A DNA stretch of 64,000 nt from CBDBIG01 sp965205845 [NCBI: bacterium]. GTDB lineage: Bacteria; SAR324. The position numbers and the translations under genes are program-made. The stretch lies in NCBI GenBank assembly GCA_965205845.1, contig CBDBIG010000005.1:186001-250000 (forward strand), given 5' to 3'. How positions within the stretch are numbered: the stretch's first letter is position 1; each line of letters starts with the position of its first letter. A model generated the notes under the pieces. That model made no database searches. It saw nothing but the letters and a program-made list of their open reading frames with translations, and was not told where the DNA came from. Of this stretch, positions 811 to 62,050 are shown one piece after another.

Positions 811-1100
811 TTTTGCCTGGACCCCCTTTGCTTTTTGCCTGGACCCCCCTTGCTTTTTGCCTGGACCCCCTTTGCTTTTTGCCTGGACCCCCCTTGCTTT
901 TTGCCTGGACCCCCTTTGCTTTTTGCCTGGACCCCCTTTGCTTTTTGCCTGGACCCCCTTTGCTTTTTGCCTGGACCCCCTTTGCTTTTTGCCTGGACCC
1001 CCTTTGCTTTTTGCCTGGACCCCCTTTGCTTTTTGCCTGGACCCCCTTTGCTTTTTGCCTGGACCCCCTTTGCTTTTTGCCTGCACCCCCTTTGTGGGTT
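811..1100. repeat. 22-bp minisatellite, 13 copies, between sucC and sucD
   Basis: The core GCCTGGACCCCC recurs every 22 bp at 815, 837, 859 and so on to 1079, giving 13 head-to-tail copies with few changes; the last copy has GCCTGC. No unique spacers separate the units. Because 22 is not a multiple of 3, all frames read the same 22-residue period, which produces several long but meaningless open frames on both strands. The array lies in what should be a very short intergenic gap inside the sucCD transcript. Confidence 0.97.
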
Positions 1101-1114
1101 TTTTTAAACAGCGT

Positions 1115-2296
1115 TTAGGCCAACACGCTCGCCGCTTGAATGCATTTGATGGCTGCTGCCTCGAGGCTTTCAGCCATTTGCAAGCGCCCCCCTAAGCCCG
1201 CACTTCCAATCACCTCACGCGCCTCATTAGAAGCAGCACCTTCCAAACGGACCACCACGGGTACGTTTAAACCCACCGAGCGAAAAGCAGCCACCACCCC
1301 GCGGGCCACGATATCACAACGCACAATGCCGCCAAAAATATTGATTAAAATGCAACGGACATTCGGGTTATGGGTAATGATGCGAAAGGCGGTTTCAACA
1401 CGCTGTTGATTAGCCCCACCTCCCACATCCAAAAAGTTGGCGGGTTCGCCCCCATGGGCTTTAATAATATCCATGGTGCCCATGGCAAGGCCTGCACCGT
1501 TTACCATGCATCCAATATTCCCATCCAAACTAACGTAGCTTAGGTCGGCATCGGCGGCTTGAATTTCCAGCGGGTTTTCTTCGTCTTTGTCGCGGAGTTC
1601 CGCGTATTCAGGATGACGAAATACGGCGTTGTCATCTAAACTCACCTTGGCATCCAAGGCAAGCACGCGCCCTTCTGCGGTAATGGCAAGGGGGTTTACC
1701 TCCAGCATCGAGCAGTCCAACGCACAAAAAGCGCGATAGGCATTTAAAATAAACTGCTGCAGCTGACGGACCACTTTGCCATCAAAACCTACCCCTAATT
1801 TTTGGGCTAATCGGGCCGCTTGAAAAGGGAGCATGCCCAAGTGTGGCTCCGCAGATTCCTGAAAAATAGCCGAAGGATTGGTTTTGGCGACTGCTTCAAT
1901 TTCCATCCCCCCTTCAAGGGAGGCCAACACGGACACCCGCTGGGTGCCGCGGTCGATCAGGAGCGAAAAATAGAGTTCTTTGGCAAGGTCAAGCCCTTCT
2001 TCAATCAGCAAGCGCCGCACCACCCGTCCTTCACGACCCGTCTGGGGGGTGACCAAGGTAGCACCCAAAATGGCTGTGGCATTTTGGGTCACCTCAGCCA
2101 TGCTTTTGCTCACCTTAACCCCGCCCGCCTTACCTCGCCCGCCCGCATGAATTTGCGCCTTGACCACCCACACGTTACCCCCAAGGCGCTTGGCGGCTGC
2201 TGGGGCGTCTTCCACTTTAAACACGGCCTCGCCCCGAGGGGTTGGCACACCATAACTCGAAAGCAGTTGCTTTGCTTGGTATTCGTGAATTTGCAT
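1115..2296 (-). CDS. sucC: Succinyl-CoA ligase (ADP-forming), beta subunit
   Basis: This is the nucleotide-binding ATP-grasp subunit of succinyl-CoA synthetase, 393 residues, the usual family length. It starts MQIHEYQAKQLLSSYGVP, has the HAGGRGKAGGVK glycine-rich ATP-grasp segment near residue 50, EVNPLAI near residue 200, and the C-terminal ligase domain with NIFGGIVRCD near residue 325. It is cotranscribed in order with sucD downstream. The ends agree with the family, so the gene looks intact. The gap to sucD is abnormally long because of the 22-bp array. Confidence 0.97.
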   Translation of the reverse strand: MQIHEYQAKQLLSSYGVPTPRGEAVFKVEDAPAAAKRLGGNVWVVKAQIHAGGRGKAGGVKVSKSMAEVTQNATAILGATLVTPQTGREGRVVRRLLIEEGLDLAKELYFSLLIDRGTQRVSVLASLEGGMEIEAVAKTNPSAIFQESAEPHLGMLPFQAARLAQKLGVGFDGKVVRQLQQFILNAYRAFCALDCSMLEVNPLAITAEGRVLALDAKVSLDDNAVFRHPEYAELRDKDEENPLEIQAADADLSYVSLDGNIGCMVNGAGLAMGTMDIIKAHGGEPANFLDVGGGANQQRVETAFRIITHNPNVRCILINIFGGIVRCDIVARGVVAAFRSVGLNVPVVVRLEGAASNEAREVIGSAGLGGRLQMAESLEAAAIKCIQAASVLA

Positions 2297-2753
2297 GGAT
2301 AATTACTTTCAGTGCCTAAAAGAGCGTGCTTCGCATGGATAAGGGAGTGGACAAGGAAATCGAAAACGAAACCGAGGGATACTGCACCTTCTATACAAAA
2401 AGCGTGTGAAATGCAAACCACAATGCGCATTTTTATCCGTGGTCACCAAAATGTTCTCATGGGTTCATGATGGGGTGTTTTTGACGCACTTTTGAGCAAA
2501 AACCAATGTCAAACACATCCATTTTCACCATCACCCAAGGGAAATGGGCCTCGAAAACCCCCGCCATGGCCGTTCGCTCTTGCCATCGACACTGGAGCGG
2601 GTGTATTTTTTAAGGAAAATAATGCTCGGGTCGAAGGGCTGCCCTGATGCGCGGATGGGCGCATCCCCAAAAGCACACAGCCTTGCAGGAGGTTTTGCTT
2701 GAGGCATCCACCCTTTTTTTGAACCCTTTTTGAAACAAAGGAAGCATACCCAG
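2297..2753. other. Intergenic region upstream of sucC
   Basis: About 455 bp between the divergent sucC and ankyrin genes. It should hold the promoters of both. I see no gene: the open frames of about 100 codons on the minus strand lack family features or ribosome sites. The only clear element is the AAAGGAAG ribosome site at 2737-2744 for the ankyrin gene. Confidence 0.5.
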
Positions 2754-3228
2754 ATGTTACCCAAAAACGGACTTTGCCACGCCTTGGTTTTTTTGGCACT
2801 CGCGGTGGCACTGCCCACTTTTCCTGCCACAGCGGATTGCGGCAAGTTATGCGACAGGGACTTTATGAAAAAAGCCAGCCCTGCCCGAGTGTATGTCCTT
2901 ACCTAAGGCAGGGCTCGATGTAAATGGGCGGGATAAATCTGAATATAGCAGCTCCCCCTTGCACCTGGCGGTGTGGAACAAGAACCCAGGGGTTATCCAA
3001 GTACCCCTTAAGGCAGGGGCGGACATCAATGCGCGGAATAGAGGTGGCGACACCCCCTTGCACCTGGCGGTGTGGAACAGGAACCCAGGGGTTATTCAAG
3101 TACCCCTTAAGGCAGGGGCGGACATCAATGCGCGGGATAAAGATGGCCACACCCCCTTGCGCTTGGCAGCAGTGGACAACGACAACGTAGAGGTAGCCCA
3201 AGCACTAACTAAGGCGGGGGCAAAATAA
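2754..3228 (+). pseudogene. Secreted ankyrin-repeat protein, interrupted by a +1 frameshift
   Basis: An ATG at 2754 with AAAGGAAG nine bases upstream opens a signal peptide (MLPKNGLCHALVFLALAVAL, then a likely cleavage after ATA) followed by DCGKLCDRDF. This frame stops at TAA 2904-2906. Skipping one base there continues directly as KAGLDVNGRDKS, giving about three ankyrin units (SPLHLAVWN, TPLHLAVWN, TPLRLAAVD) that end LTKAGAK. The join falls exactly at the conserved LxKAGADVNARD ankyrin consensus, so I read this as one gene with a single-base insertion or a programmed +1 slip at CUU-ACC-UAA. The first two units are almost identical at DNA level. Expected location is periplasmic or secreted. 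Confidence 0.72.
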
Positions 3229-3306
3229 GTGGGCGGGATAGACGTGGGAATGCCATTTGAGGCCACAGCCAGCGAAGCGCAAAAAACGTACCCTTCGAAA
3301 AACGTG

Positions 3307-3658
3307 CAGCAAAACTCCCCGTGCAAAACCACCGTAAAAGATAAGGGGCCAAGCAGGGGAACCTTTCCAAAAGGCTATTGCAGCGCAATCACAGAAAGGT
3401 TGCTCATGCGCACAGGGCGGGCTGCTTTGGGCATGGCCAGGCGCCTCCTGTGGCTGGCATAGGGGAAATGCCCATTTGGCAGCAGCAAAACTCCCCGTGC
3501 AAAACCACCGTAAAAGATAAGGGGCCAAGCAGGGGAACCTTTCCAAAAGGCTATTGCAGCGCAATCACAGAAAGGTTGCTCATGCGCACAGGGCGGGCTG
3601 CTTTGGGCATGGCCAGGCGCCTCCTGTGGCTGGCATAGGGGAAATGCCCATTTGGCAG
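3307..3658. repeat. 176-bp perfect tandem duplication of the pgeF 3' end
   Basis: Bases 3307-3482 are repeated without visible difference at 3483-3658. The unit carries the last 35 or so codons and the stop of pgeF (minus strand) plus downstream sequence. Perfect identity suggests a recent event. The distal copy is a headless gene end. Confidence 0.95.
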
Positions 3659-5947: not shown

Positions 5948-5955
5948 ATATCCAA

Positions 5956-6070: not shown

Positions 6071-7423
6071 TCAATTTTCTTCTTCAGCCACTTCGTTAAA
6101 AGTGCTGGGCAGCAAATTGAAGGGTAGGATTTGAAAGAGAATAGGTAACAATACCCCTCCTCCTGGGAGTGCAAAAATAGCCAATGACGGAATGGCTTTT
6201 AAAATATCCAGCAGCTGGGCGCGAACTTTTTCCTTTTCTTCTCTCGTTAGTGAGCGCTTGGTTGCTTCGAGCAGCAAGGTTTTTAGTTCACGCGTCTCTT
6301 CAATTTCTTGCATGATGCGCTTTAAGTTGGTTTTTACCAGCCTACGTGCGCGTTGCTGCAATCCTGAAACCAGGTTGTTCATGGAACCTTTGCCATTAAG
6401 CACGGTAAAGCGCGCATGGTGGGTGCGAAAAAACGCAGCGATTGTCGTCAGACTGGTTTTTAACTCCTTTGTAGAGACTCGCAAGTAATGACCCAGGTGA
6501 CGGGTGAAATCGTGTTCTTGCGGCGCAAAAACGGTATTGTCGATCAGGGTCATCAAGGTGGTATGCAAAAAAAACTGACGAATAAGCCACGGCACCTTGT
6601 GCAAAGGCGGCACCTTGTCAAGAGAGATCCCAGTGCGCAACAAGTGCTCTGCCTCAGTACGGTAATCCTTGGGTAAAAACGATGCGTCGATAAAATGACG
6701 AATGAGCCTTGTTTCATACAAACTGGTAGTGTTGTTGGCATAGGCAGCGGCAACCATAAGCATGAGCAAAGTGCGACGTAATGTCTGCTGCTCTTTAACC
6801 AAAAAAAATTGCACGCGGGTCGGGGCTTTTTTTTGAATATATACCTGCTGGCACCAGTGCCTCATATGGTATAAATCGAGCAGCAGAAAACTATTGCAAA
6901 ACTCCCCTGGAAACGCCCCTAAACTCGCTTGTTGCATCAGCAAGCGCGTTGTGTCGCGCTTAAACAATGCGTGGCGGCTAACCAAGATACGCATGTTAAA
7001 CCCACGCTTTATTTTGCTTGGGACATGAAGCATGTGGCTGTCACACATGCAGCGTTCGACCATGGCAAACAATTTTTGGGGCATTTGCAACAACACGTTA
7101 GGGTGGCAGCCTTCCTCCTTGGCCAAGTCAATGGCTAGAATAACCAGCAACAGATCAAAGAACATAAAATGTAACATTTCGCCGTGGGGCAACTGCCGTT
7201 TCTCGGTGCCATACAAAACCCAGGGGGCCCTCACAGGAAAACCATAGAGTATTCCCGTGGGTTGCAAGGAGGCATAGAGCAGCTGCTCAACAGCAGTTGC
7301 ATCCATGGTGCTGGTGTTTTCAGGACATTCAAGCGGGTGTTCACTGCGAAAGCGCAGGTAGCGTTCACGCCAATTTTTGCCTTGAAATGCCACATCAAAA
7401 GCGCTACATTTCGGTGCTTGCAT
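6071..7423 (-). CDS. LETM1-like domain protein
   Basis: A 450-residue protein. The C-terminal 80 residues match the LETM1-like pattern: a run of charged helix (LLLEATKRSLTREEKEKV), then LLDILKAIPSLAIFALPGG, LLPILFQILPFNLLPSTF. In mitochondria LETM1 acts in K/H or Ca/H exchange; in bacteria the family is mostly uncharacterised. The N-terminal 350 residues are helical with no domain I can name and contain several Cys and His. The hydrophobic C-terminal segment suggests membrane association. It converges with an NCKX-type exchanger 120 bp away. Its first codons and upstream region are present in extra tandem copies. Confidence 0.7.
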   Translation of the reverse strand: MQAPKCSAFDVAFQGKNWRERYLRFRSEHPLECPENTSTMDATAVEQLLYASLQPTGILYGFPVRAPWVLYGTEKRQLPHGEMLHFMFFDLLLVILAIDLAKEEGCHPNVLLQMPQKLFAMVERCMCDSHMLHVPSKIKRGFNMRILVSRHALFKRDTTRLLMQQASLGAFPGEFCNSFLLLDLYHMRHWCQQVYIQKKAPTRVQFFLVKEQQTLRRTLLMLMVAAAYANNTTSLYETRLIRHFIDASFLPKDYRTEAEHLLRTGISLDKVPPLHKVPWLIRQFFLHTTLMTLIDNTVFAPQEHDFTRHLGHYLRVSTKELKTSLTTIAAFFRTHHARFTVLNGKGSMNNLVSGLQQRARRLVKTNLKRIMQEIEETRELKTLLLEATKRSLTREEKEKVRAQLLDILKAIPSLAIFALPGGGVLLPILFQILPFNLLPSTFNEVAEEEN

Positions 7424-7822
7424 GGTATGTATTTAAACCTTGTCCCTCCGTTGCCTGCTATTTTGCGAGCAAGCCATTCTCAAAAACGCTGTATCATGCA
7501 TTTGCATGACCCTTTGTTTATGGGATTGCATAACGCGGTTATGGGTGCCACGCCCATCGGTGGTAAGCCAGGCAAAAAAACCTTACCAAAAGCGCTACAT
7601 TTTGGTGCTTGCATGGTGTGTATTTAAACCTTGTCCCTCCGTTGCCTGCTATTTTGCGAGCAAGCCATTCTCAAAAACGCTGTATCATGCATTTGCATGA
7701 CCCTTTGTTTATGGGATTGCATAACGCGATTATGGGTGCCACGCCCATCGGTGGTAAGCCAGGCAAAAAAACCTTACCAAAAGCGCTACATTTTGGTGCT
7801 TGCATGGTGTGTATTTAAACCT
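7397..7822. repeat. 191-bp tandem repeat (2.2 copies) covering the 5' end of the LETM1-like gene
   Basis: The word AAAAGCGCTACATT recurs at 7397, 7588 and 7779, an exact 191-bp period with very few changes. Each copy contains, on the minus strand, the first eight codons of the LETM1-like gene and its upstream DNA, so the start region and probably the promoter are multiplied. The third, partial copy ends just before folC. Confidence 0.95.
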
Positions 7823-7902
7823 CGTGTGTTGTGTCATGCAAAGGGGACCATGACCATCTACAAAAAACCCTTTTCACACGCTGCTTGCAAAGGGCTAAAG
7901 AG

Positions 7903-10786: not shown

Positions 10787-10908
10787 TGCGACCATTTACA
10801 AAAAAGCGGGTGGTGTAAGGCAGCATGGATAAACAAAACAAAGGCAGTGGCGGTGGCAGTCCCCCTGCGACCATTTACAAAAAAGCGGGTGGTGTAAGGC
10901 AGCATGGA
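10787..10908. repeat. Duplicated translation-start region of carA (43-bp direct repeat, 79-bp spacing)
   Basis: Bases 10787-10829 recur at 10866-10908, including the ATGGA of the carA start. The upstream copy therefore carries a decoy ATG at 10825 that opens a short frame (MDKQNKGSGGGSPPATIY...) running out of frame across the carA start. This could affect ribosome access, or it may be only a scar. Confidence 0.85.
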
Positions 10909-12079
10909 GAACAAAGCAAAAGCAATGGAGATGCGAGAGGGTGTGTTGGTACTACAAGGAGGAAAAACATTTCGCGGCCGCCTACGCACCCATGCTAGCC
11001 AAGGCAGCGGAGAGGTAATTTTTAACACCGCCATGACAGGGTATCAAGAAATTGTGGGCGATCCCTCCTACCACCGCCAAATTGTGGTGATGACCCAACC
11101 CCACATAGGCAATTACGGAATAAGCAGTGCAGATCGCGAATCGCGCGGTATTTTTGCCAGTGCTCTGATAATCAAAGAACTCAGCCCCATTACCAGTAAT
11201 TGGCGTGCTGAAACCAGCCTTGAAGCGCATTTAGACAAGTACGCCATTCCTTTGCTTGAAGGGGTAAATACCCGCCAGTTGGTGCTTAACTTGCGTGATG
11301 AAGGTACGCGGACAGGGGTGATTGCACCAGCCAATACCTCACGCGAGGCACTGCAAAAAATGCTTGCGCAAACCCCCGATATGGCGGGCTGCCAACTGGC
11401 CGAAGAGGTTTCTACAAAACAGGCGTATGGCTGGGGTGATGAGGTTCCACAACCTGCACGCCTTGACCCCTTACCCCTAAACGCCCATGCCATTTCCCAA
11501 CCCACACCCTTTAAGGTGGTGGCCTACGACTACGGCATTAAGCATGCCCTGCTTCGTCAAATGGTAAGTTTTGGCATGCAAGTAGAGGTGGTCCCCTGCG
11601 CTACCCCCGCAGCCGAAGTGCTGGCCAAAAAACCCGATGGTGTGTTTTTATCCAACGGGCCTGGGGATCCAAAACCCTTACGTAAAGCGGTTAAAAATGT
11701 GCAAGATTTGCTGGGCAGGGTGCCTATTTTTGGGGTGTGCTTAGGGCATCAAATATTGGGTTTGGCTTTGGGTGGGCACACGTTTAAGTTGAAATTTGGG
11801 CATCACGGGGCGAACCACCCCGTAAAGCACTTGGCCAGTGGCAGGGTAGAAATTACCAGCCAAAACCACGGCTTTGCCATCGCTTCCCAAGGTCTGCCTC
11901 AAGGGGTCCAGATCACCCATGTCAATTTAAACGACGACACCATAGCAGGTTTAGAGAGTGTTGAGCACAGTGCTTTTTCGGTGCAATACCACCCTGAAGC
12001 TTCCCCTGGCCCCCACGATTCACGCTATTTGTTTGGGTATTTTGCCCAGCGCATGCTGCAATCGAGAAACAAGGACTAA
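10904..12079 (+). CDS. carA: Carbamoyl-phosphate synthase, small (glutaminase) subunit
   Basis: The glutamine amidotransferase subunit supplies ammonia to CarB for arginine and pyrimidine synthesis. Protein of 391 residues. The N-terminal CPSase domain has the FNTAMTGYQEI landmark. The C-terminal class I GATase has SNGPGDP, the nucleophile elbow GVCLGHQILGLALGG, and the catalytic His-Glu in YHPEASPGPHDS. ATG 10904 is chosen, but in-frame ATGs at 10925 and 10931 are possible. carB is not next door; the following genes are on the other strand. Three copies of AAGGACT run through the stop codon (12070-12090), another small tandem duplication at a gene end. Confidence 0.95.
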   Translation: MENKAKAMEMREGVLVLQGGKTFRGRLRTHASQGSGEVIFNTAMTGYQEIVGDPSYHRQIVVMTQPHIGNYGISSADRESRGIFASALIIKELSPITSNWRAETSLEAHLDKYAIPLLEGVNTRQLVLNLRDEGTRTGVIAPANTSREALQKMLAQTPDMAGCQLAEEVSTKQAYGWGDEVPQPARLDPLPLNAHAISQPTPFKVVAYDYGIKHALLRQMVSFGMQVEVVPCATPAAEVLAKKPDGVFLSNGPGDPKPLRKAVKNVQDLLGRVPIFGVCLGHQILGLALGGHTFKLKFGHHGANHPVKHLASGRVEITSQNHGFAIASQGLPQGVQITHVNLNDDTIAGLESVEHSAFSVQYHPEASPGPHDSRYLFGYFAQRMLQSRNKD

Positions 12080-23150: not shown

Positions 23151-23370
23151 CACGCTGAATGCAGCGCTGAATGCAACCGCACGCTGAATGCAACTGCACG
23201 CTGATTACAACTGCACGCTGAATGCGACTGCACGCTGAATGCGACTGCACGCTGAATGCAACTGCACGCTGAATGCAACTGCACGCTGAATGCAGCGCTG
23301 AATGCAACCGCACGCTGAATGCAACTGCACGCTGATTACAACTGCACGCTGAATGCAACTGCACGCCTGG
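23151..23370. repeat. 17-bp tandem array, 14 units, with a 131-bp higher-order duplication
   Basis: CGCTGAATG (or CGCTGATTA) recurs at 23153, 23165, 23182, 23199, 23216, 23233, 23250, 23267, 23284, 23296, 23313, 23330, 23347 and, partly, 23364. Spacing is 17 bp apart from two 12-bp steps. The short step and a variant GATTACAACT unit both recur 131 bp later, so a block of eight units was itself duplicated. There are no spacers. It abuts a transposase fragment. Confidence 0.95.
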
Positions 23371-25066: not shown

Positions 25067-25285
25067 GCGCAAAAAGGTCCGCGCAAAAGGATCCGCGCAA
25101 AAAGATCCGCGCAAAAAGGTCCGCGCAAAAGGATCCGCGCAAAAAGATCCGCGCAAAAAGATCCGCGCAAAAAGATCCGCGCAAAAAGATCCGCGCAAAA
25201 AGATCCGCGCAAAAAGATCCGCGCAAAAAGATCCGCGCAAAAAGATCCGCGCAAAAAGATCCGCGCAAAAAGATCCGCGCAAAAA
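25067..25285. repeat. 14-bp GATC-containing tandem array, 15 units
   Basis: The unit GATCCGCGCAAAAA recurs every 14 bp from 25076 to 25272. Thirteen units carry GATC and two (25076 and 25118) carry GGTC; two have AAAAGGATCC, so a BamHI site. It ends about 95 bp upstream of the DUF2254-like gene. There are no spacers. The GATC sites lie a fixed 14 bp apart, an unusually dense cluster of potential Dam targets. Confidence 0.96.
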
Positions 25286-25379
25286 GCCAATAAAAAGCAC
25301 CCTTGTATTTGCCTATTGAACCCTTAAGCGTGCACTGTGCCTCTATAGAGAGTCCCGCCTGTTATGAGGAGACACATTT

Positions 25380-29336: not shown

Positions 29337-29422
29337 ATCCAAGGTGTCTGGGGACAACGAAGCATGTTGCTAAAAACAGATGCAAATCCAAGGTGTCTGG
29401 GGACAACGAAGCGTGTTGCTAA
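29337..29422. repeat. 49-bp tandem duplication upstream of glyS
   Basis: ATCCAAGGTGTCTGGGGACA and the following AACGAAGC.TGTTGCTAA occur at 29337 and again 49 bp later, with one base different. It lies between the acyl-CoA dehydrogenase gene and glyS. Confidence 0.9.
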
Positions 29423-33771: not shown

Positions 33772-34774
33772 TCACGAAGAAGTGTTGGGGCATTGGTGTT
33801 GGGGCATGCAAAGTTATTCTCCCCAAGCCAAAGTATTAATCTGCGGACAAACCGTTTTTGACCTTGCCTCACTCACCAAGCCACTGGCCACAACGCTATG
33901 TGCGCTGCTCTTGCAGCAGCGTCAGCTGCTTTGCTTACAGCAACCCTTGGGGGATTTTTTTGCCGAATTTAAACAAGCAGAAAAATCCCGCATTACCCTC
34001 ATTGACCTTCTCACCCATCGTGCAGGATTCGCAGCTTGGGTCGATTTGTATTCTCACAACCAAACCAGCCAACAAGCCCTACAAACCCTGGTACAGCAAC
34101 CCTTAGAACACCCGCCACGCAGCACCATGCTGTATAGCGACGTTGGCTTTTTACTGTTGGCAGCGTGTTTGCGTCAAGTTACGGGACACACGCTCAAAAC
34201 GCTTTTTGCCAACACAGTGGCCCAACCTTTAGGCCTAAAGCACTGCGCTTTTCGCCCCTTAGAAGAGGGTTGGGAGAACCCCTTTGCGCCCACTCAAAAT
34301 TGTCCATGGCGCAAACGCGTACTATGCGGCGAGGTGCATGACGAAAACGCGTGGATTTTGAACCAGGAAGGGGGAAATGCGGGCCTCTTTGCCCATGCGG
34401 GGGATGTACATCGCCTTGCAACTGCGGTGCTTCGCGGCCTCCAAGGGCTCCATTCTCCCCCCTGGGAGATCAGCCAACACACCCTAACCTTCATGTGTCA
34501 AAACCACAATCCACCTTCCCTCGAGCCCCGTGGGTTGGGTTGGGATATGAAGGCTTCAAGGGGTTATAGCAGCGCAGGTCAGCATTTTTCACAACGCGCC
34601 ATTGGGCACACCGCTTTTACGGGTCCTTCGCTGTGGATGGAGCCTCAAAGTGGTATCCTTGTTGTCATACTTTGTTCGCGGGTTAATGGGGGACGGTTTC
34701 ATGCCCAAAAAGAATGGATAGCCTTACGCCCGATGTTGCACGATGCGCTCCTTGAAGCTTTCACCTCGTTGTAG
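33674..34774 (+). CDS. Serine beta-lactamase-fold hydrolase (class C / esterase-type)
   Basis: A 366-residue penicillin-binding-protein-fold hydrolase. The nucleophile motif SxxK is FDLASLTKPLA near residue 61. The YxN-like motif is YSDVGFLLLA near residue 155, with Asp in place of Asn. The third strand motif is probably HTAFTGPSLW near residue 310. No signal peptide is visible, so it is probably a cytoplasmic esterase or peptidase of this family and not a resistance beta-lactamase. Its first 30 codons are also present in the upstream chimeric frame, and its last 12 codons lie in the 80-bp array. Confidence 0.85.
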   Translation: MAMQAVPPPGLNRLAHHILDQKILPGLEVLIARHEEVLGHWCWGMQSYSPQAKVLICGQTVFDLASLTKPLATTLCALLLQQRQLLCLQQPLGDFFAEFKQAEKSRITLIDLLTHRAGFAAWVDLYSHNQTSQQALQTLVQQPLEHPPRSTMLYSDVGFLLLAACLRQVTGHTLKTLFANTVAQPLGLKHCAFRPLEEGWENPFAPTQNCPWRKRVLCGEVHDENAWILNQEGGNAGLFAHAGDVHRLATAVLRGLQGLHSPPWEISQHTLTFMCQNHNPPSLEPRGLGWDMKASRGYSSAGQHFSQRAIGHTAFTGPSLWMEPQSGILVVILCSRVNGGRFHAQKEWIALRPMLHDALLEAFTSL

Positions 34775-35220
34775 TTTGCGCCAAGTTTTTGGCGAGGGCT
34801 TGTCTCGTGGGATGGCGTCACGATGCGCTCCTCTAGAAGCTTTCATCCCGTTATCGTCTGTAAAATCTTTGGCGAGGGCTTGTCTCGTGGGATGGCGTCA
34901 CGATGCGCTCCTCTAGAAGCTTTCATCTCGTTATCGTCTGCAAAGTCTTTGGCGAGGGCTTGTCTCCTGGGATGGCGTCACGATGCGCTCCTCTAGAAGC
35001 TTTCATCCCGTTATCGTCTGTAAAGTCTTTGGCGAGGGCTTGTCTCCTGGGATGGCGTCGCGATGCGCTCCTCTAGAAGCTTTCATCTCGTTATCGTCTG
35101 CAAAGTCTTTGGCGAGGGCTTGTCTCGTGGGATGGCGTCACGATGCGCTCCTCTAGAAGCTTTCACCTCGTTATCGTCTGTAAAATCTTTGGCGAGGGCT
35201 TGTAGCGTCTCGTGGGATAG
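34739..35220. repeat. 80-bp tandem array, 6 units, at convergent gene ends
   Basis: CGATGCGCTCC recurs at 34741, 34821, 34901, 34981, 35061 and 35141, exactly 80 bp apart, with few changes. Each unit fuses the last codons of the hydrolase gene (plus strand) to the last codons of the DUF3501 gene (minus strand), so the array arose by repeated tandem duplication of their convergent junction. Confidence 0.97.
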
Positions 35221-35760
35221 CGTGAGGCTTTCGGTATAGGCAGGGTGGGTAATGTCAAGGCGAACGTTGCCCTCTTGACCCTGTGTCAACCACGCTTTGC
35301 GCTGAACCGCTTGCAGTGGAAAGGAGATATACTGCACCGAACTAAGCCTGTCGCGACCGATTTGTTTTAGGTCAAAAACGGCATTCACAGGGGGTGTATT
35401 ACCCACCACAAAGCAGATCTCTTTTTCTAAGCCCCGCAAACCACTTAACACCTGTGGGCGGGTGATAGGGTCTTCGTGCTCAATGAGCAAAGTGGCTGAC
35501 AGCCCACCACGGCTCGGGAGCAAGGCATTGTAGGTCGAAATTTCATGGGCAATGGCTTCGGGCTTCACAATCCGTTCCGTGCGCATCATTTCTTGTACTT
35601 GGTAAAGCATTGTTAAATGATTTTCAAACAAAAAAGTCATGATTGGCCCCACGTGCAAGCGTCTGCAGGCTTTTTCCCGCATTACTTCCTGCCGAAACGC
35701 GTCTCGAATGCGTTCATACTCCGCAATGTCTTTTATCTCTGAAATATCGACCAATTTCAT
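35083..35760 (-). CDS. DUF3501 family protein
   Basis: Start MKLVDISEIKDIAEYERI at ATG 35760 matches the usual DUF3501 beginning; a GTG at 35805 is less likely. The words RLHVGPIMTFLFENHLTMLY and VQEMMRTERI are typical. Family function is unknown, but it is genomically tied to rubrerythrin and a GlpC-like Fe-S protein, as here, suggesting a role in an oxidative-stress or electron-transfer complex. The last 27 residues (from about VKASRGAHRDAIPRDKP) are encoded by the 80-bp array, so the native C-terminus has been replaced by repeat-derived sequence. Confidence 0.85.
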   Translation of the reverse strand: MKLVDISEIKDIAEYERIRDAFRQEVMREKACRRLHVGPIMTFLFENHLTMLYQVQEMMRTERIVKPEAIAHEISTYNALLPSRGGLSATLLIEHEDPITRPQVLSGLRGLEKEICFVVGNTPPVNAVFDLKQIGRDRLSSVQYISFPLQAVQRKAWLTQGQEGNVRLDITHPAYTESLTLSHETLQALAKDFTDDNEVKASRGAHRDAIPRDKPSPKTLQTITR

Positions 35761-38335: not shown

Positions 38336-39106
38336 ATGCGCCCCAATCGTTTAAAAAAATTACTCAAAGATGGCAAATACACCTGCGGTTCATGGCTTTC
38401 GATGGGGTCTAATGTGGGTGCAGAGGTCATGGGTCAAATGGGTTTTGACTGGTTATTGATTGACATGGAACATGGTGCAGGTGGTTATGAAACCTTGATT
38501 GGCCAATTGCAAGGCATTGCAACCAGCGGCAATGCAACCCCTATCGTGCGCGTAGAAAGCAACGATGCTGTGGTGATTAAACGCGTGCTCGATTGTGGGG
38601 CATCCGGTGTAATGGTGCCGGGCATCCGCAGCGCAGCGCAGGCCAAAAATGCCGTTGCGGCCATTCAATACCCACCTGCTGGAATCCGTGGTATTGCAGG
38701 TTCACGCTGTGCTGCCTATGGGGCGGACAAGGACTACGTTAAAGACGCCAACGACAACATCATGATGTTTTTGCAAATTGAAACCAGGGGGGCGATTGAA
38801 GACATTGACGCCATTTTGGATGTCCCTGGAATTGATGTCGCTTTTTTAGGACCCAACGACCTTTCTGCCGATTTGGGCTATGTTGGCAACTGGGATCACC
38901 CTAATGTCATAAAAGCCATTCAAAAAATGGAAAGCGCGGCCAACAAACGCAATATTCCTCTAGGGACAGTGTCGCGGTCATGGGAGGCCGCTGCGGATTA
39001 CATCAGCCGCGGTTACCGTGCCCAGGCTCTCATGGGAGACATTCCTCTCATGTCTCAGGGAGCGCGCCGCATTGTGGAGCAATTTAGGGCACATCCCAAC
39101 GTTTAG
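38336..39106 (+). CDS. HpcH/HpaI aldolase/citrate lyase family protein
   Basis: A class II, metal-dependent aldolase of 256 residues. It has GSWLSMGSNVGAEVMGQMGF, the metal and substrate region LLIDMEHGAGGYET, PIVRVESND, VMVPGIRSAAQAKNAV, FLQIETRGAIEDIDAIL and DVAFLGPNDLSADLGYVG. These are the HpaI/GarL-type active-site words, with Glu and Asp as metal ligands. It probably cleaves a 2-keto-3-deoxy acid. The natural substrate cannot be told. The last 16 codons lie in the 102-bp repeat. Confidence 0.92.
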   Translation: MRPNRLKKLLKDGKYTCGSWLSMGSNVGAEVMGQMGFDWLLIDMEHGAGGYETLIGQLQGIATSGNATPIVRVESNDAVVIKRVLDCGASGVMVPGIRSAAQAKNAVAAIQYPPAGIRGIAGSRCAAYGADKDYVKDANDNIMMFLQIETRGAIEDIDAILDVPGIDVAFLGPNDLSADLGYVGNWDHPNVIKAIQKMESAANKRNIPLGTVSRSWEAAADYISRGYRAQALMGDIPLMSQGARRIVEQFRAHPNV

Positions 39107-39357
39107 CGAGCCTCTTGGGATCCCCTTTTGGGGCACAGATCATTCGGCTACGGGTCCCGGGGAGCGCGCCGCATTGTGGAGCAATTTAGGGCACATCCCA
39201 ACGTTTAGCGAGCCTCCTGGGATCCCCTTTTGGGGCACAGATCATTCGGCTACGGGTCCCGGGGAGCGCGCCGCATTGTGGAGCAATTTAGGGCACATCC
39301 CAACGTTTAGCGAGCCTCCTGGGATCCCCTTTTGGGGCACAGATCATTCGGCTACGG
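39059..39357. repeat. 102-bp tandem repeat, 3 copies, from the aldolase 3' end
   Basis: AGCGCGCCGCATTGTGGAGC recurs at 39061, 39163 and 39265, exactly 102 bp apart and nearly identical. The first copy contains the aldolase C-terminal codons and stop. Because 102 is a multiple of 3, another plus-strand frame (39018-39392) reads through all three as a perfect 34-residue repeat. Confidence 0.96.
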
Positions 39358-44607: not shown

Positions 44608-44903
44608 GGTGCGTCTTGTAGGGTTTTGTGTGCAAAAGGTGCGCCGTTGCCCGCATAGGCCTTTTGCGCTATAGCGGCGTTAACACAACCCATGTTTTAG
44701 TACCATCACTACCACAACCCGTAGGGCGCATCTGACCCACCGGAAGGTGCGTCTTGTAGGGTTTTGTGTGCAAAAGGTGCGCCGTTGCCCGCATAGGCCT
44801 TTTGCGCTACAGCGGCGTTAACACAACCCATGTTTTAGTACCATCACTACCACAACCCGTAGGGCGCACCTGACCCATCGGAATAGGCTTCACGGTGTAT
44901 GTT
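44608..44903. repeat. 148-bp tandem duplication of the lipoprotein 2 3' end
   Basis: GGTGCGTCTTGTAGGG starts both copies, at 44608 and 44756, and the 148-bp units differ at only a few bases. The copy at 44756 contains the last 30 codons and stop of lipoprotein 2; the copy at 44608 is a headless duplicate of it. Confidence 0.93.
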
Positions 44904-45487
44904 GGAATCGTCTTCGGGACGTTTGCAAGTGCGTGGTATTCATCCCCGTGATCCACGCAAGCATATAGTTTTCCTCCATCAAACGCCCAATGGAGTCGAA
45001 GATAGCAGGTAACGGGGTTCGTGGCAGAGGGAACAGATATAGTAGGATCCAACCTATAATCGCCGGGGCAAGGCACGCTTGCAATTGACTGGCCGGTTGT
45101 ATGGGTTCTTTCAACGATTAAAGTCTGGCTGGAAGGGTCAGCCGATATAATCGTGTATTCTGCCCTTGGGCCTGTCATGGATTGTCCAAAGTAAATGGTC
45201 CAGGCCTTGTTCGTAATAACGTGAGGGTTTCCATGAGAACTCTCATACTGTCCTGCAATCGGGTGCCCGATGCCACCCCCTCCCCCAGCACTTTCACCAC
45301 CACCCCCTCCCCCAGCACTTTCACCACCACCACCACCACCGCAAGCACCGAGCAACAATACCAAACCCAACAGCCAAGCCCCTCCATAACGGCAAAGCCA
45401 GGCGGGCACCCATAACGCCCGTAAAAGGGGGGGAGTGTCTTGAGGGTAACGGCACTGCTTTGCGGTTTGGCTATGGTTGGGTAACAC
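44807..45487 (-). CDS. Lipoprotein, paralogue 2
   Basis: A 226-residue lipoprotein, paralogous to the next gene downstream. Start GTG 45487 has AAGGAG upstream at the same distance. The lipobox is VLLLGACGGGG, followed by an expanded linker in which GGGGESAG is tandemly duplicated. The C-terminal body has Cys pairs (VPCPGDY, VTCYLRLHWAF, YACVDHG, TGCGSDG) that could form disulfides. The two genes and their flanks (45503-45670 resembles 44453-44620 and, in part, 43690-43790) look like an old tandem gene duplication. Confidence 0.72.
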   Translation of the reverse strand: MLPNHSQTAKQCRYPQDTPPLLRALWVPAWLCRYGGAWLLGLVLLLGACGGGGGGESAGGGGGGESAGGGGGIGHPIAGQYESSHGNPHVITNKAWTIYFGQSMTGPRAEYTIISADPSSQTLIVERTHTTGQSIASVPCPGDYRLDPTISVPSATNPVTCYLRLHWAFDGGKLYACVDHGDEYHALANVPKTIPTYTVKPIPMGQVRPTGCGSDGTKTWVVLTPL

Positions 45488-47467: not shown

Positions 47468-48541
47468 CTAAAGCATTTCTTTTGTGCCTGCCATCCTTTT
47501 GTTGGGAGAGGGCCAAGCAAAATAAGGGAACCGCTGGATGAGTTTTGGCAATACAAGTGCTTGCTGCTGGGGCTCAAACCACCAAACCCATGCGCCATTG
47601 GCTTGCTTGATGGGAAGGGCACTGGGTTGTTCGGGGTTACCAAAACCCTGGTTGCGCAACCAGGTTAGTTGACGTTTGGCAAACTGCCCTGTGCGTAGGG
47701 CAATCTCTTGGCCTAATCTCTCGAGGGATGGGCGTTGTGCAAAGGGTGTTTCCAAGTAGGCAAGCACCTGTTTGTAGCCTATGCTGCCCATTGCTTGGGC
47801 ATTGGGTGAGCAACCCTGTGCCAGTAGGGTTTGGGTTTCCTCAAGCCAACCCGCTTGAAGCATGGCCTGGGTGCGTTGGGCAATGCGTTGGCGGAGTTCA
47901 TTTCGCGGCCAGGCAAACCCCACAAACAGCCAACTTTTCAGGCTTTTGCTGGCAATTGCTTGAGGTGGAGAAGCATCTGTATGGCTAGAATAGGCTGTGT
48001 GCCAAGCACTTAAGGGTCGCGAACTGGCATAGTACACCTCTAAAGCACGACCTATGCGTTGGCTGTCATGCGGGTGAATAGTTTTTGCTGCAAAACGATC
48101 CACCTGGCTTAGCAGTGTATAACCCGCGGCGAGCCCTTGGATTTGCAACATGGTTTGCACACGCTGGCGCAGTGCTGGGGGAATGGGTGGAAAGGACGCT
48201 ATTCCCTGCAAAGCGGTGCGCAAATACAAACCCGCCCCCCCGCAAAGGAGTACGGTTTTTCCTTGAGCCTCCACTTCTTGGATCACACGTTGGGCATCTT
48301 TGGCAAATTGCCCGGCAGAATAGATCTGGTGGTGCTGCACGATGTCAATGAGATGGTGTTGAATGCCCGCGCGTTGCGCTTGGGTGGGTTTAGCGCTCCC
48401 AATGTCAAACCCACAATACACTTGGACCGAGTCCACCCCAATGACATCGGTCGCCAGGTGCTGGGCAAGGCTTAAAGCAAGCGCTGTCTTGCCACTTGCG
48501 GTGGGACCAACAACGGCAATACGGCACGGAAGTACAGGCAT
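47468..48541 (-). CDS. miaA: tRNA dimethylallyltransferase
   Basis: Transfers the dimethylallyl group to A37 of tRNAs that read UNN codons. 357 aa from ATG 48541 (a GTG three codons earlier at 48550 is less likely). Landmarks: P-loop VVGPTASGKTALALSLA, DVIGVDSVQVYCGFDIGSAK, HHLIDIV, FAKDAQRVIQEV, LCGGAGLYLRTAL and MGSIGYKQVLAYLE. The C-terminal basic part with RTGQFAKRQLTWLRNQ is intact. Upstream on the same strand are secG and tpiA. The 5' end is copied in a 157-bp duplication. Confidence 0.95.
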   Translation of the reverse strand: MPVLPCRIAVVGPTASGKTALALSLAQHLATDVIGVDSVQVYCGFDIGSAKPTQAQRAGIQHHLIDIVQHHQIYSAGQFAKDAQRVIQEVEAQGKTVLLCGGAGLYLRTALQGIASFPPIPPALRQRVQTMLQIQGLAAGYTLLSQVDRFAAKTIHPHDSQRIGRALEVYYASSRPLSAWHTAYSSHTDASPPQAIASKSLKSWLFVGFAWPRNELRQRIAQRTQAMLQAGWLEETQTLLAQGCSPNAQAMGSIGYKQVLAYLETPFAQRPSLERLGQEIALRTGQFAKRQLTWLRNQGFGNPEQPSALPIKQANGAWVWWFEPQQQALVLPKLIQRFPYFAWPSPNKRMAGTKEML

Positions 48542-48796
48542 CGGTCTCACGGGTTTTTTAAAAAGGCAAAAACGCTATTTTTGGGATTTTTTTGCGGGGC
48601 TGTGTCGGTTTGAGGGGATAGCCGCGCCAGGCGTGTTGCCATCATTTGCCACTTGCGGTGGGACCAACAACGGCAACGCGGCACGGAAGTACAGGCATCG
48701 GTCTCACGGGTTTTTTAAAAAGGCAAAAACGCTATTTTTGGGATTTTTGCGGGGCTGTGTCGGTTGAGGGGATAGCCGCGCCAGGCGTGTTGCCTT
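48489..48796. repeat. ~155-bp tandem duplication across the secG/miaA junction
   Basis: TTGCCACTTGCGGTGGGACC starts both copies, at 48489 and 48646. Each contains the first ~17 codons of miaA, the spacer, and the last codons of secG (minus strand). The copies differ by a few bases and three single-base-type indels, so this one is older than the perfect duplications elsewhere. Confidence 0.92.
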
Positions 48797-49091
48797 CACT
48801 CGCAGCAGGTGAGGGGGTATCCAAGGTGCTCGAAGCGCTTTGCTTGGGTTGCACCACGGAACTGGGCACGGTTCGATACCAAAAAGCGAGCCATAAAGAA
48901 GAAAGCATAAACAAGGTGGCCAGCACCGCGGTAACTTTGGTAAGCAGTGTAGTCGGGGGCCTTCCTGCGGCGGCCTGACCAATGCCCCCAAATGCCGCCC
49001 CCAACTCAGCACCACGCCCCGCTTGCAATAGCACCACAACAATCAGCAAAATAGAAATAAGGGTATGAAATGTTAAAACGAGAACCAGCAT
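48732..49091 (-). CDS. secG: Preprotein translocase subunit SecG
   Basis: A small SecYEG subunit. 119 aa from ATG 49091, with AAAGAGA six bases upstream; the longer frame to 49136 has no ribosome site. It has two membrane helices (LVLTFHTLISILLIVVVLLQ and VTAVLATLFMLSSLWLA) flanking the family loop GRGAELGAAFGGIGQAAAGR. The C-terminal 45 residues are polar, rich in Ser, Thr and Pro. It follows tpiA, a common neighbour. Confidence 0.92.
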   Translation of the reverse strand: MLVLVLTFHTLISILLIVVVLLQAGRGAELGAAFGGIGQAAAGRPPTTLLTKVTAVLATLFMLSSLWLAFWYRTVPSSVVQPKQSASSTLDTPSPAASEGNTPGAAIPSTDTAPQKSQK

Positions 49092-55009: not shown

Positions 55010-56338
55010 ATGCCCAAGGAGCACATTGCAACCCACGCCCAACGGACTCCAGGCTCACAAAGCCTGATTGAACGGGCCGAGAAAGTAACCCCAGGCGGTG
55101 TACATCACGACAGTCGACGCCACGGCCCCTACCCCATTTATTTTAACAAAGCCAAAGGTCCCAAGGTATGGGATGTGGATGGCAATGCCTATATTGATTT
55201 ATGGATGGCCCATTACGATGCCATTTTGGGTCACGCCTCAAATAGCATTGTGCGTGCCGTCCAAACAGCCGCCAGTTCAGGCTTGCACATTGGTGTTTCT
55301 CTTGAGCAAGAAGTGGCAGTGGCCGAAAAGATCGTTCAATTGGTTCCTTCTGCGGAGCAAGCACGCTTTTGTTGTTCAGGTACCGAAGCTACCATGTATG
55401 CCGTACGCTTGGCACGAGGCTTTACGGGGCGTTCAACCATTATTAAAATTACCGGAGGTTGGCACGGGGCGAGCACCGATTTAATGGTTAATGTTCGGCC
55501 ACCCGAGTTTAATGGGGCTGAAGGTGCGGGCTTGCCATCTGAATTGGCAAAGTGCACCGTTTCCGCTCAGTACAACGACATTGATGACATGAAACGCGTG
55601 ATGGATGAAGCTGGGTCTGACTTTGCAGGCATTATCATGGAGCCTGTGATGGGAGCAGGCATGCTGCCCGTTGACCCGCAATTTTTGCAGTTTGTGCGTG
55701 AAGAAACCACCAAACGCGGTGCCGTAATGATTTTAGACGAAATTATCACAGGATTTCGCCTTTCCCTGGGAGGGGCGCAAGAACGCTTTGGGATAACTCC
55801 CGATATCACCACCCTGGGCAAAGTGCTGGGGGGCGGCATGCCCGTTGGTGCCATTGCTGGTCGCGCTGATATTATGCATATTAGCTCGGGTGCTGCTTCT
55901 GTGCCTAAGTCTAAGCGTGTGGTGATAGGTGGTGGGACGTACTCGTGCAACCCTTTAAGCATGGCAGCTTGTTCTTCTGTGCTAACCCAATTAGAAAAAG
56001 AGCAAAATACCGTTTATCCCGCCATTGAAGAAGCCAACCAGCGTATGTGTGATGGGATGGCACAGGCCTTTAAGGAGGTGGATATTCCTGTGTGTATCAC
56101 GCGCTCGGGTTCGCTTTCTGAACTGCATTTTGTGAAAGAAGTGGGCATGCGGGTGGGTAACATGGCTGACATAGTCAACAATACAAGCAGTGCTCAGCAA
56201 AAAGAATTTGCCCTACGCCTGCGCAATAAGGGTGTATTTTTGTTTCATGCCATGGCGGTTTCCACCACCCACGATGCACAGGCGATAGAGCATATTATTG
56301 CTGCCACGAAGGAGGCTGCCCAGGAGATGCGCGGCTAA
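55010..56338 (+). CDS. Class III aminotransferase, glutamate-1-semialdehyde-aminomutase-like
   Basis: A PLP enzyme of about 442 residues from ATG 55010, with GAAGGT ten bases upstream. Landmarks: RAEKVTPGGVHHDSRRHGP, FCCSGTEATMYAVRLARGFT, ITGGWHGASTDLMVN, MILDEIITGFRLSLGGAQER (PLP Asp), and the Schiff-base Lys in TTLGKVLGGGMPVGAIAGR. It resembles HemL, but details such as the N-terminus fit the broader aspartate-aminotransferase-family (class III) group. The reaction is not certain. Its last 20 codons start a five-fold 108-bp array. Confidence 0.88.
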   Translation: MPKEHIATHAQRTPGSQSLIERAEKVTPGGVHHDSRRHGPYPIYFNKAKGPKVWDVDGNAYIDLWMAHYDAILGHASNSIVRAVQTAASSGLHIGVSLEQEVAVAEKIVQLVPSAEQARFCCSGTEATMYAVRLARGFTGRSTIIKITGGWHGASTDLMVNVRPPEFNGAEGAGLPSELAKCTVSAQYNDIDDMKRVMDEAGSDFAGIIMEPVMGAGMLPVDPQFLQFVREETTKRGAVMILDEIITGFRLSLGGAQERFGITPDITTLGKVLGGGMPVGAIAGRADIMHISSGAASVPKSKRVVIGGGTYSCNPLSMAACSSVLTQLEKEQNTVYPAIEEANQRMCDGMAQAFKEVDIPVCITRSGSLSELHFVKEVGMRVGNMADIVNNTSSAQQKEFALRLRNKGVFLFHAMAVSTTHDAQAIEHIIAATKEAAQEMRG

Positions 56339-56812
56339 ACGCGGCCCGGCCTTTTTATTGCGGTGCTCTTTACAGCCATGATCCACAGGCGATAGAGCAT
56401 ATTATTGCTGCCACGAAGGAGGCTGCCCAGGAGATGCGCGGCTAAACGCGGCCCGGCCTTTTTATTGCGGTGCTCTTTACAGCCATGATCCACAGGCTAT
56501 GTTGTTTACTTGTTGCTGCCACGAAGGAGGCTGCCCAGGAGATGCGCGGCTAAACGCGGCCCGGCCTTTTTATTGCGGTGCTCTTTACAGCCATGATCCA
56601 CAGGCTATGTTGTTTACTTGTTGCTGCCACGAAGGAGGCTGCCCAGGAGATGCGCGGCTAAACGCGGCCCGGCCTTTTTATTGCGGTGCTCTTTACAGCC
56701 ATGATCCACAGGCTATGTTGTTTACTTGTTGCTGCCACGAAGGAGGCTGCCCAGGAGATGCGCGGCTAAACGCGGCCCGGCCTTTTTATTGCGGTGCTCT
56801 TTTTTTTTAAAA
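56275..56812. repeat. 107/108-bp tandem array, 5 units, at the aminotransferase 3' end
   Basis: CAGGAGATGCGCGGCTAAAC recurs at 56321, 56428, 56536, 56644 and 56752. The first copy holds the true last codons and stop. Copies 3-5 share a TATGTTGTTTACTTGTT variant where copies 1-2 have GATAGAGCATATTATT, so expansion happened in two stages. The 108-bp period leaves a plus-strand frame (56499-56810) with a perfect 36-residue Cys-rich repeat. Confidence 0.97.
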
Positions 56813-60310: not shown

Positions 60311-60338
60311 TATTGATGGGAACTTAATAGGGCAGTAT

Positions 60339-60480
60339 GTGAGCGGCGCTATTAAACCCGGCATCGAAAAATGTGTGCTTATTGCACAAAAAGCCAATAT
60401 TTCTATCCAATGGTTAGCCATTGGCGAAGGCCCGATGCGCGTTGGCGGGCTGGCAGCAAAAAAAGCCCTTAAGCGTAAAA
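60339..60480 (+). pseudogene. Phage repressor-like remnant
   Basis: The plus-strand frame reads SGAIKPGIEKCVLIAQKANI then SIQWLAIGEGPMRV, which matches the end of the helix-turn-helix domain of CI-type phage repressors (ending WLxxGEGPM). The start is missing and the frame then loses similarity. It is divergent to the transposase remnant, as repressor and transposase are in Mu-like phages. Confidence 0.5.
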
Positions 60481-60743
60481 ACCACCTGCCCTGCCGACAT
60501 GAGCCCCGCAGAAGACTTTGCGGTGATCGCCACGGGACGCGGTATTGTAAATCCCTTTCGAACATTTTCCAACCCTTTAGAATTCCCTCTACAGGGCCCT
60601 CGAAAAAGTCTTACGCCATGTGAACGAAAAACGCGCAAACCCGCATGCCACCGTTTTTTGGGCGGGACACGTGGGACTCGGTTTTGGGGCTGCCGCCTGT
60701 GTCAAAAAACCCTGTGAATCCCGCTATATCCCGCTATATCCCG

Positions 60744-61052
60744 CTATTTTCTAGTGGTGGCAAAGCATGTGAATGGGCACATGCGTATACCTGTTTTAGA
60801 ATGCGTGATGCTTATATCTTCATCATACATTCCGGGCTGGGCGTTGAGATTGAGTTTTTGGATCTGCCAATTCCTTCCTTTGAGTATTTGTTTTAGAACA
60901 ACGGCCACAATATATTCTGTAGCCTTACCCCGTATCATCGGGAGGACTTTTTGATCTTCCAAAATATCCATCAGGTTTTCGATGGGGACATTATACCGTT
61001 CACAATATTCCTTTATATCATCGTAAATTTGGAGATTGGCAACTTCATTCAT
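60744..61052 (-). pseudogene. Truncated restriction endonuclease-like gene next to the Dam-type methylase
   Basis: A 102-codon frame, MNEVANLQIYDDIKEYCERY..., that starts eight bases inside the end of the methylase frame. Words such as IRGKATEYIVAVVLKQIL and MYDEDISITHSKTGI look like the N-terminal part of a type II restriction enzyme (a helical start, then an acidic strand). The remainder is missing and replaced by phage-like DNA. Assignment rests mostly on position beside the methylase. Confidence 0.4.
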
Positions 61053-62050
61053 GTTGGTCGATTTCCTTTGGACATGGGAGTTGCACAGGGTCGCAAGCCG
61101 TTATTGTGTCTTTATCATAGTTCTTGATAAAGAGTTTGCGGCCAGTTCCACGGCTGCTCTTATGGCCGTCAGCGCGTTTCTTGCCATTCTTTTGGTCATC
61201 AGTTCTGCTAATCGTATACTGCCACCCCTGATCTTCCATAACATCACACCACGCGTATAATTCCTGAACGCCTTTTGAATTGTCATAGGTTATCAGGTAA
61301 AGACAGTCTGTCTGCATTACGTTGTAAACACGCCATCAAGTAGATATGGTCGCGCAATTCAAAATGGCATGGATAAAATTTTTTCTGGTCAGCATTAAAA
61401 TAGGGTGGGTCAACAAAAAGGAACGCCCCGTCTGGCATGGTATCAATACAGTCCTCAAAATCAAGCGAGGTCAATTTTACGCCCTGCAAACGATTAGAGA
61501 CCATACGTAGATGGTGCGGCCAGTTTTCAGGCCGCATCGAATATTTGGCACCGTAACCGAAGTAGCAGTTTTCGCGCTTCATAATCCCAGAATAGGAAGT
61601 GCGGTTTAGGTAATACCAACGAAATGCCCGTTCCAAGTCGTCAGAGGGCTTGTATGTGTTTTTGTAATGGGCGTGGAGTTTCTTTGTCGCAGGAATGCCA
61701 TCCAACAAGCCCAGCAGCCTGTCAAGATTATCCCTAATCTGCACAAAGGTGTTCATAACGTCCGTGTCGAGATCATTTAAGATGGACTGTCCAGCAGGCT
61801 CTTTGGCGAAAAAAATGGAAGCCCCACCCGCGAATGGCTCACAATATACACTCGTGTCGAGATCATTTAAGATGGACTGTCCAGCAGGCTCTTTGGCGAA
61901 AAAAATGGAAGCCCCACCCGCGAATGGCTCACAATATACACTGGTTTTAGGAATGTGAGGTAAAATGACTTTGCGGGCATAAAACTTGCGTCCCGCATAT
62001 CTGAATGGAGAATTGCTCTTGCCGGAATGAATATGAATTACCTCACGCAT
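61045..62050 (-). pseudogene. Dam/DpnM-like adenine-N6 DNA methyltransferase, frameshifted and internally duplicated
   Basis: The N-terminal frame (62050-61283) has FRYAGRKFYARKVILPHIP, motif I CEPFAGGASIFFAKEP, LNDLDTDVMNTF, and motif IV FVDPPYF, as in Dam and DpnM. It stops at LSLPDNL, but a second frame (61317-61045) continues with LITYDNSKGVQELYAWCDVM and SSRGTGRKLFIKNYD, the normal C-terminal part. A single frameshift near 61290 joins them. A perfect 90-bp duplication repeats motif I in frame (30 extra residues). Both changes probably inactivate it. Confidence 0.75.
61763..61942. repeat. 90-bp perfect tandem duplication inside the methylase gene
   Basis: CGTGTCGAGATCATTTAAGA starts both copies, at 61763 and 61853, and the 90 bases are identical. 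It doubles the peptide TSVYCEPFAGG...ILNDLD, which carries SAM-binding motif I. It is one of the few duplications in the window that lies wholly inside a gene. Confidence 0.95.

What the first reader, a model, noticed from the sequence alone, without database searches (positions are those of the whole stretch)
811..61942. A window-wide burst of tandem duplications at gene boundaries
At least fifteen tandem duplications (units of about 14, 17, 22, 49, 51, 79, 80, 90, 102, 108, 148, 155, 176, 191 and 277 bp) lie in 64 kb. Most straddle a gene end or a junction: pgeF 3', LETM1-like 5', carA 5', helicase/hydrolase, hydrolase/DUF3501, aldolase 3', lipoprotein 3', secG/miaA, aminotransferase 3'. Some are base-perfect and some diverged, so the process looks ongoing. 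Selection against copies inside genes would explain the placement, but the rate itself is unusual. Possible causes are a repair defect or template switching, or an unknown mechanism that targets gene ends.
Basis: seen in the sequence. Interest (0 to 1): 0.75.

Follow-up and report, generated by a model that had tools for sequence, protein, structure and literature searches.

The report
Dense local tandem duplications, gene-sparing
This stretch of an unidentified bacterial genome holds many small back-to-back DNA copies, about as densely as in the heartwater bacterium that is known for this, and they lie where they do mainly because copies that would break a gene are missing.

Summary
Tandem Repeats Finder gives 14 arrays of score 100 or more in 64 kb (7.4% of bases); 50 shuffles give none. 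Three weaker arrays make 17. Comparators: E. coli 1 in 150 kb, Helicobacter 4 in 140 kb, six other replicons 0-1 each in 50-100 kb. With published settings the window (7.4%) resembles Ehrlichia ruminantium (6.3%), not E. coli (0.38%) (PMC3287509).

Nine of 17 straddle gene ends, 4 are intergenic, 4 lie inside genes, these with units divisible by three. None of 11 other-length units lies inside a gene, P about 2e-7. Loss of gene-breaking copies explains most of the placement; extra attraction to gene ends is weak (P 0.07).

Five of seven measured junctions have at most 1 bp of homology, so births look homology-free. One in-gene duplication is absent from relatives.

No whole genome is held: the rate against relatives, repair-gene loss and assembly error stay open. 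I file it as a new member of an E. ruminantium-like phenomenon.

The parts
810..1094 (.). 22 bp x 13 array between sucC and sucD
   Evidence: TRF 98%; sucD start at 596
2954..3167 (.). 99 bp x 2.2 array inside an ankyrin-repeat gene, in frame (natural protein repeat, may be of a different kind)
3306..3658 (.). 176 bp x 2, 100% identical, spans the 3' end of pgeF
7396..7825 (.). 191 bp x 2.25 between the 5' end of a LETM1-like gene and folC; 48-bp third partial copy
10787..10945 (.). 79 bp x 2 over the carA leader and start; 43 bases identical, the rest decayed
23160..23366 (.). 17 bp x 12 array, intergenic after dnaE
25067..25286 (.). 14 bp x 15.7 array, intergenic
27271..27986 (+). 51 bp x 14 array, in frame: 17-residue repeat tail of a DUF2254 protein
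29337..29422 (.). 37-bp repeat at period 49, intergenic
33218..33770 (.). 277 bp x 2 (98.9%) spanning uvrD 3' end and the next gene's start; both genes stay intact
34739..35223 (.). 80 bp x 6 spanning two converging 3' ends (hydrolase, DUF3501); outer copies diverged, inner ones alike
39052..39357 (.). 102 bp x 3 spanning aldolase 3' end
44608..44883 (.). 138 bp x 2 (97.8%) spanning the 3' end of a putative lipoprotein gene
45273..45331 (-). 27 bp x 2.2 in frame inside the same putative lipoprotein gene
48489..48798 (.). 157 bp x 2 (about 96%) spanning secG 3' end and miaA start
56266..56802 (.). 107/108 bp x 5 spanning aminotransferase 3' end
61763..61942 (-). 90 bp x 2, 100% identical, in frame in a D12 methyltransferase; absent from relatives

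Best explanation
A general, local duplication process makes tandem copies of whatever sequence lies there (tens to hundreds of bp). Step 1, birth: a segment is copied next to itself without needing homology at its ends (shown for five arrays as near-zero junction homology; the enzymes are inferred, for example fill-in of a staggered break and blunt joining, or a polymerase jumping back). Step 2, growth and shrinkage: once two copies exist, slippage or unequal recombination changes copy number and keeps inner copies alike (inferred from sequence). Step 3, filter: a tandem copy destroys a gene only if it lies wholly inside that gene and shifts the frame, so survivors straddle gene ends, lie between genes, or are in frame. 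The result is an Ehrlichia ruminantium-like pattern.
For: 14 arrays in 64 kb against 0-4 in each comparator of 50-150 kb and 0 in 50 shuffles. Self-BLAST at E 1e-5: the matches lie within about 1 kb of their partner and no two separate arrays match, so each array is built from its own local sequence. All 4 in-gene units are divisible by three; 0 of 11 other units lie inside a gene, expected 74% each, P = 2e-7. Of seven junctions measured, five (units 176, 277, 102, 138, 90) have 1, -1, 0, 0 and 0 bp of homology, as random breakpoints would (P(h<=1) = 0.83; h>=4 in 2.4%). In the 80-bp array the four inner copies are 95-98% alike and the outer ones 82-91% like the rest; in the 102- and 108-bp arrays only the first copy diverges (97%, 93%) while the following full ones are identical. 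The 90-bp duplication is missing in the two relatives displayed (50% and 49% identity, 30-residue gap); a third shows a similar difference in aligned lengths.
Against: Two of the seven junctions do show homology: 48 bp in the 191-bp array and 5 bp in the 27-bp array; the ankyrin array extends 16 bp beyond a unit. The aminotransferase array was also printed but changes its period (107/108), so no junction value was taken from it. Long units straddle gene ends more often than the filter alone predicts (9 of 9, P = 0.0125), though over all 13 outside arrays P = 0.07. The 22-bp array shows no gradient between neighbouring and distant copies. Two of the three viral contigs with the methyltransferase also carry a short-unit array of score 100 or more, as does one of ten other contigs. 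The rate is known only for this 64 kb; no relative and no whole genome could be examined. The perfect copies (176, 90) could be assembly errors.
Confidence: 0.6

Rival explanations
1. Classical slippage or recombination between short direct repeats creates the duplications, in a cell with weakened repair (mismatch repair, single-strand exonucleases).
For: Two junctions carry 5 and 48 bp of homology. In Salmonella 5 of 8 tested spontaneous duplications were verified, with a deduced cut-off of 11 bp; the 7- and 9-bp candidates were not verified, and the screen favoured long homologies (PMC3411829, passages). The Wolbachia paper attributes growth of repeats to slipped-strand mispairing and names E. 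ruminantium (PMC3287509, passages).
Against: Five of seven measured junctions have at most 1 bp. No excess folding in segments of 10 of the 17 arrays, z from -1.06 to 1.96. Window dnaE and uvrD keep the motifs tested. Repair genes could not be searched for.
Confidence: 0.2
2. Duplication is targeted to gene ends, for example by transcription termination or collisions of replication and transcription.
For: All nine long units outside genes straddle an end, P = 0.0125.
Against: Over all 13 outside arrays 9 straddle, 6.2 expected, P = 0.07. Both 3' and 5' ends are included, and in-frame copies lie inside genes.
Confidence: 0.12
3. Part of it is an assembly artefact, such as contig overlaps that were joined without merging.
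For: Such joins would give perfect two-copy repeats without junction homology, as in the 176- and 90-bp cases. No reads are available.
Against: Most arrays have diverged copies, or 3-16 copies; in-gene copies are all in frame. Other fetched contigs mostly lack arrays of score 100 or more: 9 of 10 (192 kb) and 1 of 3 (47 kb).
Confidence: 0.08

Closest known systems
Ehrlichia ruminantium tandem-repeat genome plasticity (Collins 2005, Frutos 2006; originals not held, seen through passages of PMC10710844 and PMC7343930 and the table of PMC3287509)
   Same: Similar share of the sequence: 6.3% there, 7.4% here with the same TRF settings; mean unit 139 bp there; repeats mostly in non-coding regions
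   Different: This window is about 50% GC against about 29% (PMC7343930); collapsed coding share of the window 83% against about 64% (PMC10710844); organism unplaced; copy-number variation between strains untested here
Wolbachia VNTR loci (105- and 141-bp periods) and repeats in ankyrin genes (PMC3287509)
   Same: Intergenic arrays of similar unit size; ankyrin-gene repeats
   Different: 0.1-1.6% of the genome in four strains, less than here; hairpins proposed there, no excess folding in the segments tested here
Small tandem duplications by fill-in and end joining at staggered breaks (eukaryotes, PMC8355091, passages)
   Same: Short tandem copies; in that work junction microhomology is more frequent in the alternative end-joining route than in the main one
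   Different: Eukaryotic enzymes; no bacterial counterpart tested here; only an analogy

Membership tests
E. ruminantium-type tandem-repeat plasticity | Tandem repeats make up several per cent of the sequence | tested here: met
   7.4% here, 6.3% in E. ruminantium, same TRF settings; only 64 kb seen here
E. ruminantium-type tandem-repeat plasticity | Repeats lie mostly outside coding sequence | tested here: met
   13 of 17 arrays lie between genes or straddle gene ends
E. ruminantium-type tandem-repeat plasticity | Copy number varies between strains | not testable with these tools
   No second strain and no genome held; the single-copy methyltransferase in relatives is only a deep comparison
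Slippage between short direct repeats | Direct repeat of several bp at the junction | tested here: not met
   Five of seven junctions at most 1 bp; two exceptions with 5 and 48 bp
Dispersed repeat elements (REP, MITE and the like) | Same unit at distant sites | tested here: not met
   Within the window, self-matches at E 1e-5 lie within about 1 kb; none between separate arrays
End-joining origin of small tandem duplications | Ku and LigD or another end-joining system in the genome | not testable with these tools
   No whole genome held

The most novel reading that the evidence does not exclude
A bacterium in which a homology-independent duplicating process (for example fill-in of staggered breaks followed by end joining) continually gives birth to tandem repeats genome-wide, with natural selection leaving only the gene-sparing ones.
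Probability: 0.25. Interest if true: 0.65.

Novelty: new member of a known kind. Interest (0 to 1): 0.42.

Why it matters
It would be a further bacterium, of very different base composition, with E. ruminantium-like repeat density, and the gene-sparing rule (harmful only if wholly inside a gene and out of frame) gives a simple test for whether such repeats are targeted or merely filtered. From general knowledge, the birth of tandem repeats in bacteria is mostly put down to short direct repeats; homology-free junctions would point elsewhere.

Tried and rejected
Mobile or dispersed repeat family: rejected within the window, no match between separate arrays. Hairpin-driven slippage: no excess folding in segments of 10 of the 17 arrays. 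RNA genes under the arrays: no Rfam match at the gathering score and no tRNA in the window. Broken dnaE or uvrD as cause: the motifs checked are present (residue numbers and motifs are recalled). Close relatives: the one genome-contig scan gave only a Helicobacter uvrD at 36%; in plasmids the listed rows were 50-57% for sucC, 49-58% for GlyRS and 28-36% for the Fe-S protein; in viral contigs no relative of the methyltransferase by its own patterns, dnaE relatives at 26-41%, and no exact match to two array units. The organism's class stays unplaced: the listed sucC hits are mostly proteobacterial, 9 of 10 listed GlyRS hits are Firmicutes or Actinobacteria.

Literature: 7 searches. The two founding E. 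ruminantium papers are not held. PMC9937504 was looked at in passages and gave nothing on how the repeats arise.

The gene map is my own (longest ORFs plus family hits, 45 genes, some without a family hit). In the placement test the DUF3501 end was set to the Pfam domain end, 58182-60743 (no confident gene) was left out, and the aminotransferase array was entered as 107 bp; taking it as 108 leaves 10 units not divisible by three and P of about 9e-7 (arithmetic). In one search the long units use the collapsed map and the short ones the uncollapsed map.

Full report
What is there. Tandem Repeats Finder reports 14 arrays of score 100 or more and period 10 or more in the window, 4,760 bases or 7.4%. 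Self-BLAST and a gapless offset scan add three that indels or decay hide: units of 157 (48489-48798), 79 (10787-10945) and 49 (29337-29422). Fifty dinucleotide shuffles gave 13 rows of score 50 or more in all, none of 100 or more.

How unusual. With the same settings: E. coli K-12 1 array in 150 kb, Cupriavidus metallidurans chromid 1 in 100 kb, Azospirillum plasmid 0 in 100 kb, Peptoclostridium, Vescimonas, Vibrio and Paraburkholderia replicons 0 in 50 kb each, Helicobacter 4 in 140 kb (one very long repeat brings Helicobacter to 3.9% of bases). Of ten further contigs (192 kb) one carries an array of that score, and of the three viral contigs that hold the methyltransferase (47 kb) two do, with units of 12 and 21 or 39 bp. 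With the settings of a published table the window has 15 rows, 23.4 per 100 kb and 7.4%; Helicobacter 16 rows in 140 kb and 1.05%, Azospirillum 9 rows in 100 kb and 0.29%, E. coli 2 rows in 150 kb and 0.22%, C. metallidurans 4 rows and 0.17%, Paraburkholderia 2 rows and 0.15%, the others 0. The table gives E. ruminantium 201 rows in 1,516,355 bp (6.3%), wMel Wolbachia 1.6%, E. coli 0.38% (PMC3287509, section 7 read). The comparators are not known relatives of the window's organism, which I could not place; no genome is held for it.

Placement. With my gene map (45 genes), 9 of 17 arrays straddle at least one gene end, 4 lie between genes and 4 lie inside genes. All four inside units (99, 51, 27, 90) are multiples of three; the 99-bp one is an ankyrin repeat and may have a protein-level cause. 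Of the 11 units that are not multiples of three none lies inside a gene although 74% of random positions would, P = 2e-7 (10 units and about 9e-7 if the aminotransferase array is taken as 108 bp). This follows from simple geometry: a tandem copy that spans a gene end leaves one complete copy of each gene (for example uvrD uses the first 277-bp copy and the next gene the second). The rest of the pattern is nearly explained by that filter: 9 straddling of 13 outside arrays against 6.2 expected, P = 0.07; for long units alone 9 of 9, P = 0.0125, a split I made after seeing the data. Eleven genes are straddled. In seven (carA, uvrD, hydrolase, DUF3501, aldolase, secG, miaA) the family profile is matched to within 10 positions of its end on the array's side, in pgeF and the aminotransferase it stops 22 and 30 positions short, and for the LETM1-like and lipoprotein genes there is no information; so most of these are real gene ends and not truncations.

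Junctions. Seven arrays could be measured at one offset. Units 176, 277, 102, 138 and 90 show 1, -1, 0, 0 and 0 bp of homology beyond whole copies (the 102-bp value counts six left-edge bases with two mismatches); 27 shows 5 (in a CAC run) and 191 shows 48. The aminotransferase array, printed in the same call, changes its period and was not counted; the ankyrin array gives 16. In random breakpoints in this window 0-1 bp occurs in 83% and 4 bp or more in 2.4%. So most measured births look homology-free. The 191-bp case may have used a pre-existing repeat or lost part of a third copy.

Growth and age. In the 80-bp array the four inner copies are 95-98% alike, while the first and last are 82-91% like the rest; in the 102-bp array the first copy is 97% and the other two identical; in the 108-bp array the first is 93%, the next three are identical and the last is partial; the 22-bp array shows no gradient (98.3% between neighbours, 98.7% between others) (aligned identities; the consensus row printed there for the first 108-bp copy is a register shift). 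Two-copy arrays run from 100% (176, 90) through 98.9, 97.8 and about 96 to about 83-86%. No excess folding: z from -1.06 to 1.96 in segments of 10 of the 17 arrays, the 176-bp unit only over its first 150 bases.

A polarised case. The D12 methyltransferase at 61283-62050 carries a perfect 90-bp in-frame duplication that repeats CEPFAGGASIFF, which I recall as the AdoMet-binding motif. Three viral contigs hold relatives of this gene and of its two neighbours; in the two alignments displayed the 30 residues are absent, and the third shows a similar difference in aligned lengths. The single copy is therefore most likely ancestral, and the in-frame gain lies on the window's side.

Verdict. The sequence facts are solid, the explanation by a gene-sparing filter is strong, the homology-free birth rests on five junctions, and the enzymatic cause is inference. 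E. ruminantium has been described as having active expansion and contraction at tandem repeats in non-coding regions (PMC10710844, passages), so this is a new member of a known kind.

Noticed in passing
61283-62050: D12 methyltransferase with a perfect in-frame duplication of what I recall as its AdoMet-binding motif; may be inactive. With the genes at 60744-61052 and 61045-61317 it forms a trio that is also present on three viral contigs (L033-L035).
   Followed up: partly
25380-28064: DUF2254 membrane protein with a C-terminal tail of about fourteen 17-residue repeats (PQRTPLGAQRAPTKAAQ-like).
   Followed up: no
35083-35223: The DUF3501 gene runs past its Pfam domain into the 80-bp array, so its C-terminal tail is made of repeat DNA.
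   Followed up: partly
43769-45677: Two neighbouring putative lipoprotein genes are diverged tandem duplicates (71% identity at an offset of about 1 kb), a larger and older event.
   Followed up: no
29509-30903: Single-chain glycyl-tRNA synthetase whose listed plasmid hits are mostly Firmicutes and Actinobacteria, next to genes that look proteobacterial.
   Followed up: no
58182-60743: About 2.5 kb without a confident gene; two ORFs there gave no PHROGs hit, and the longer one no Pfam hit either.
   Followed up: partly
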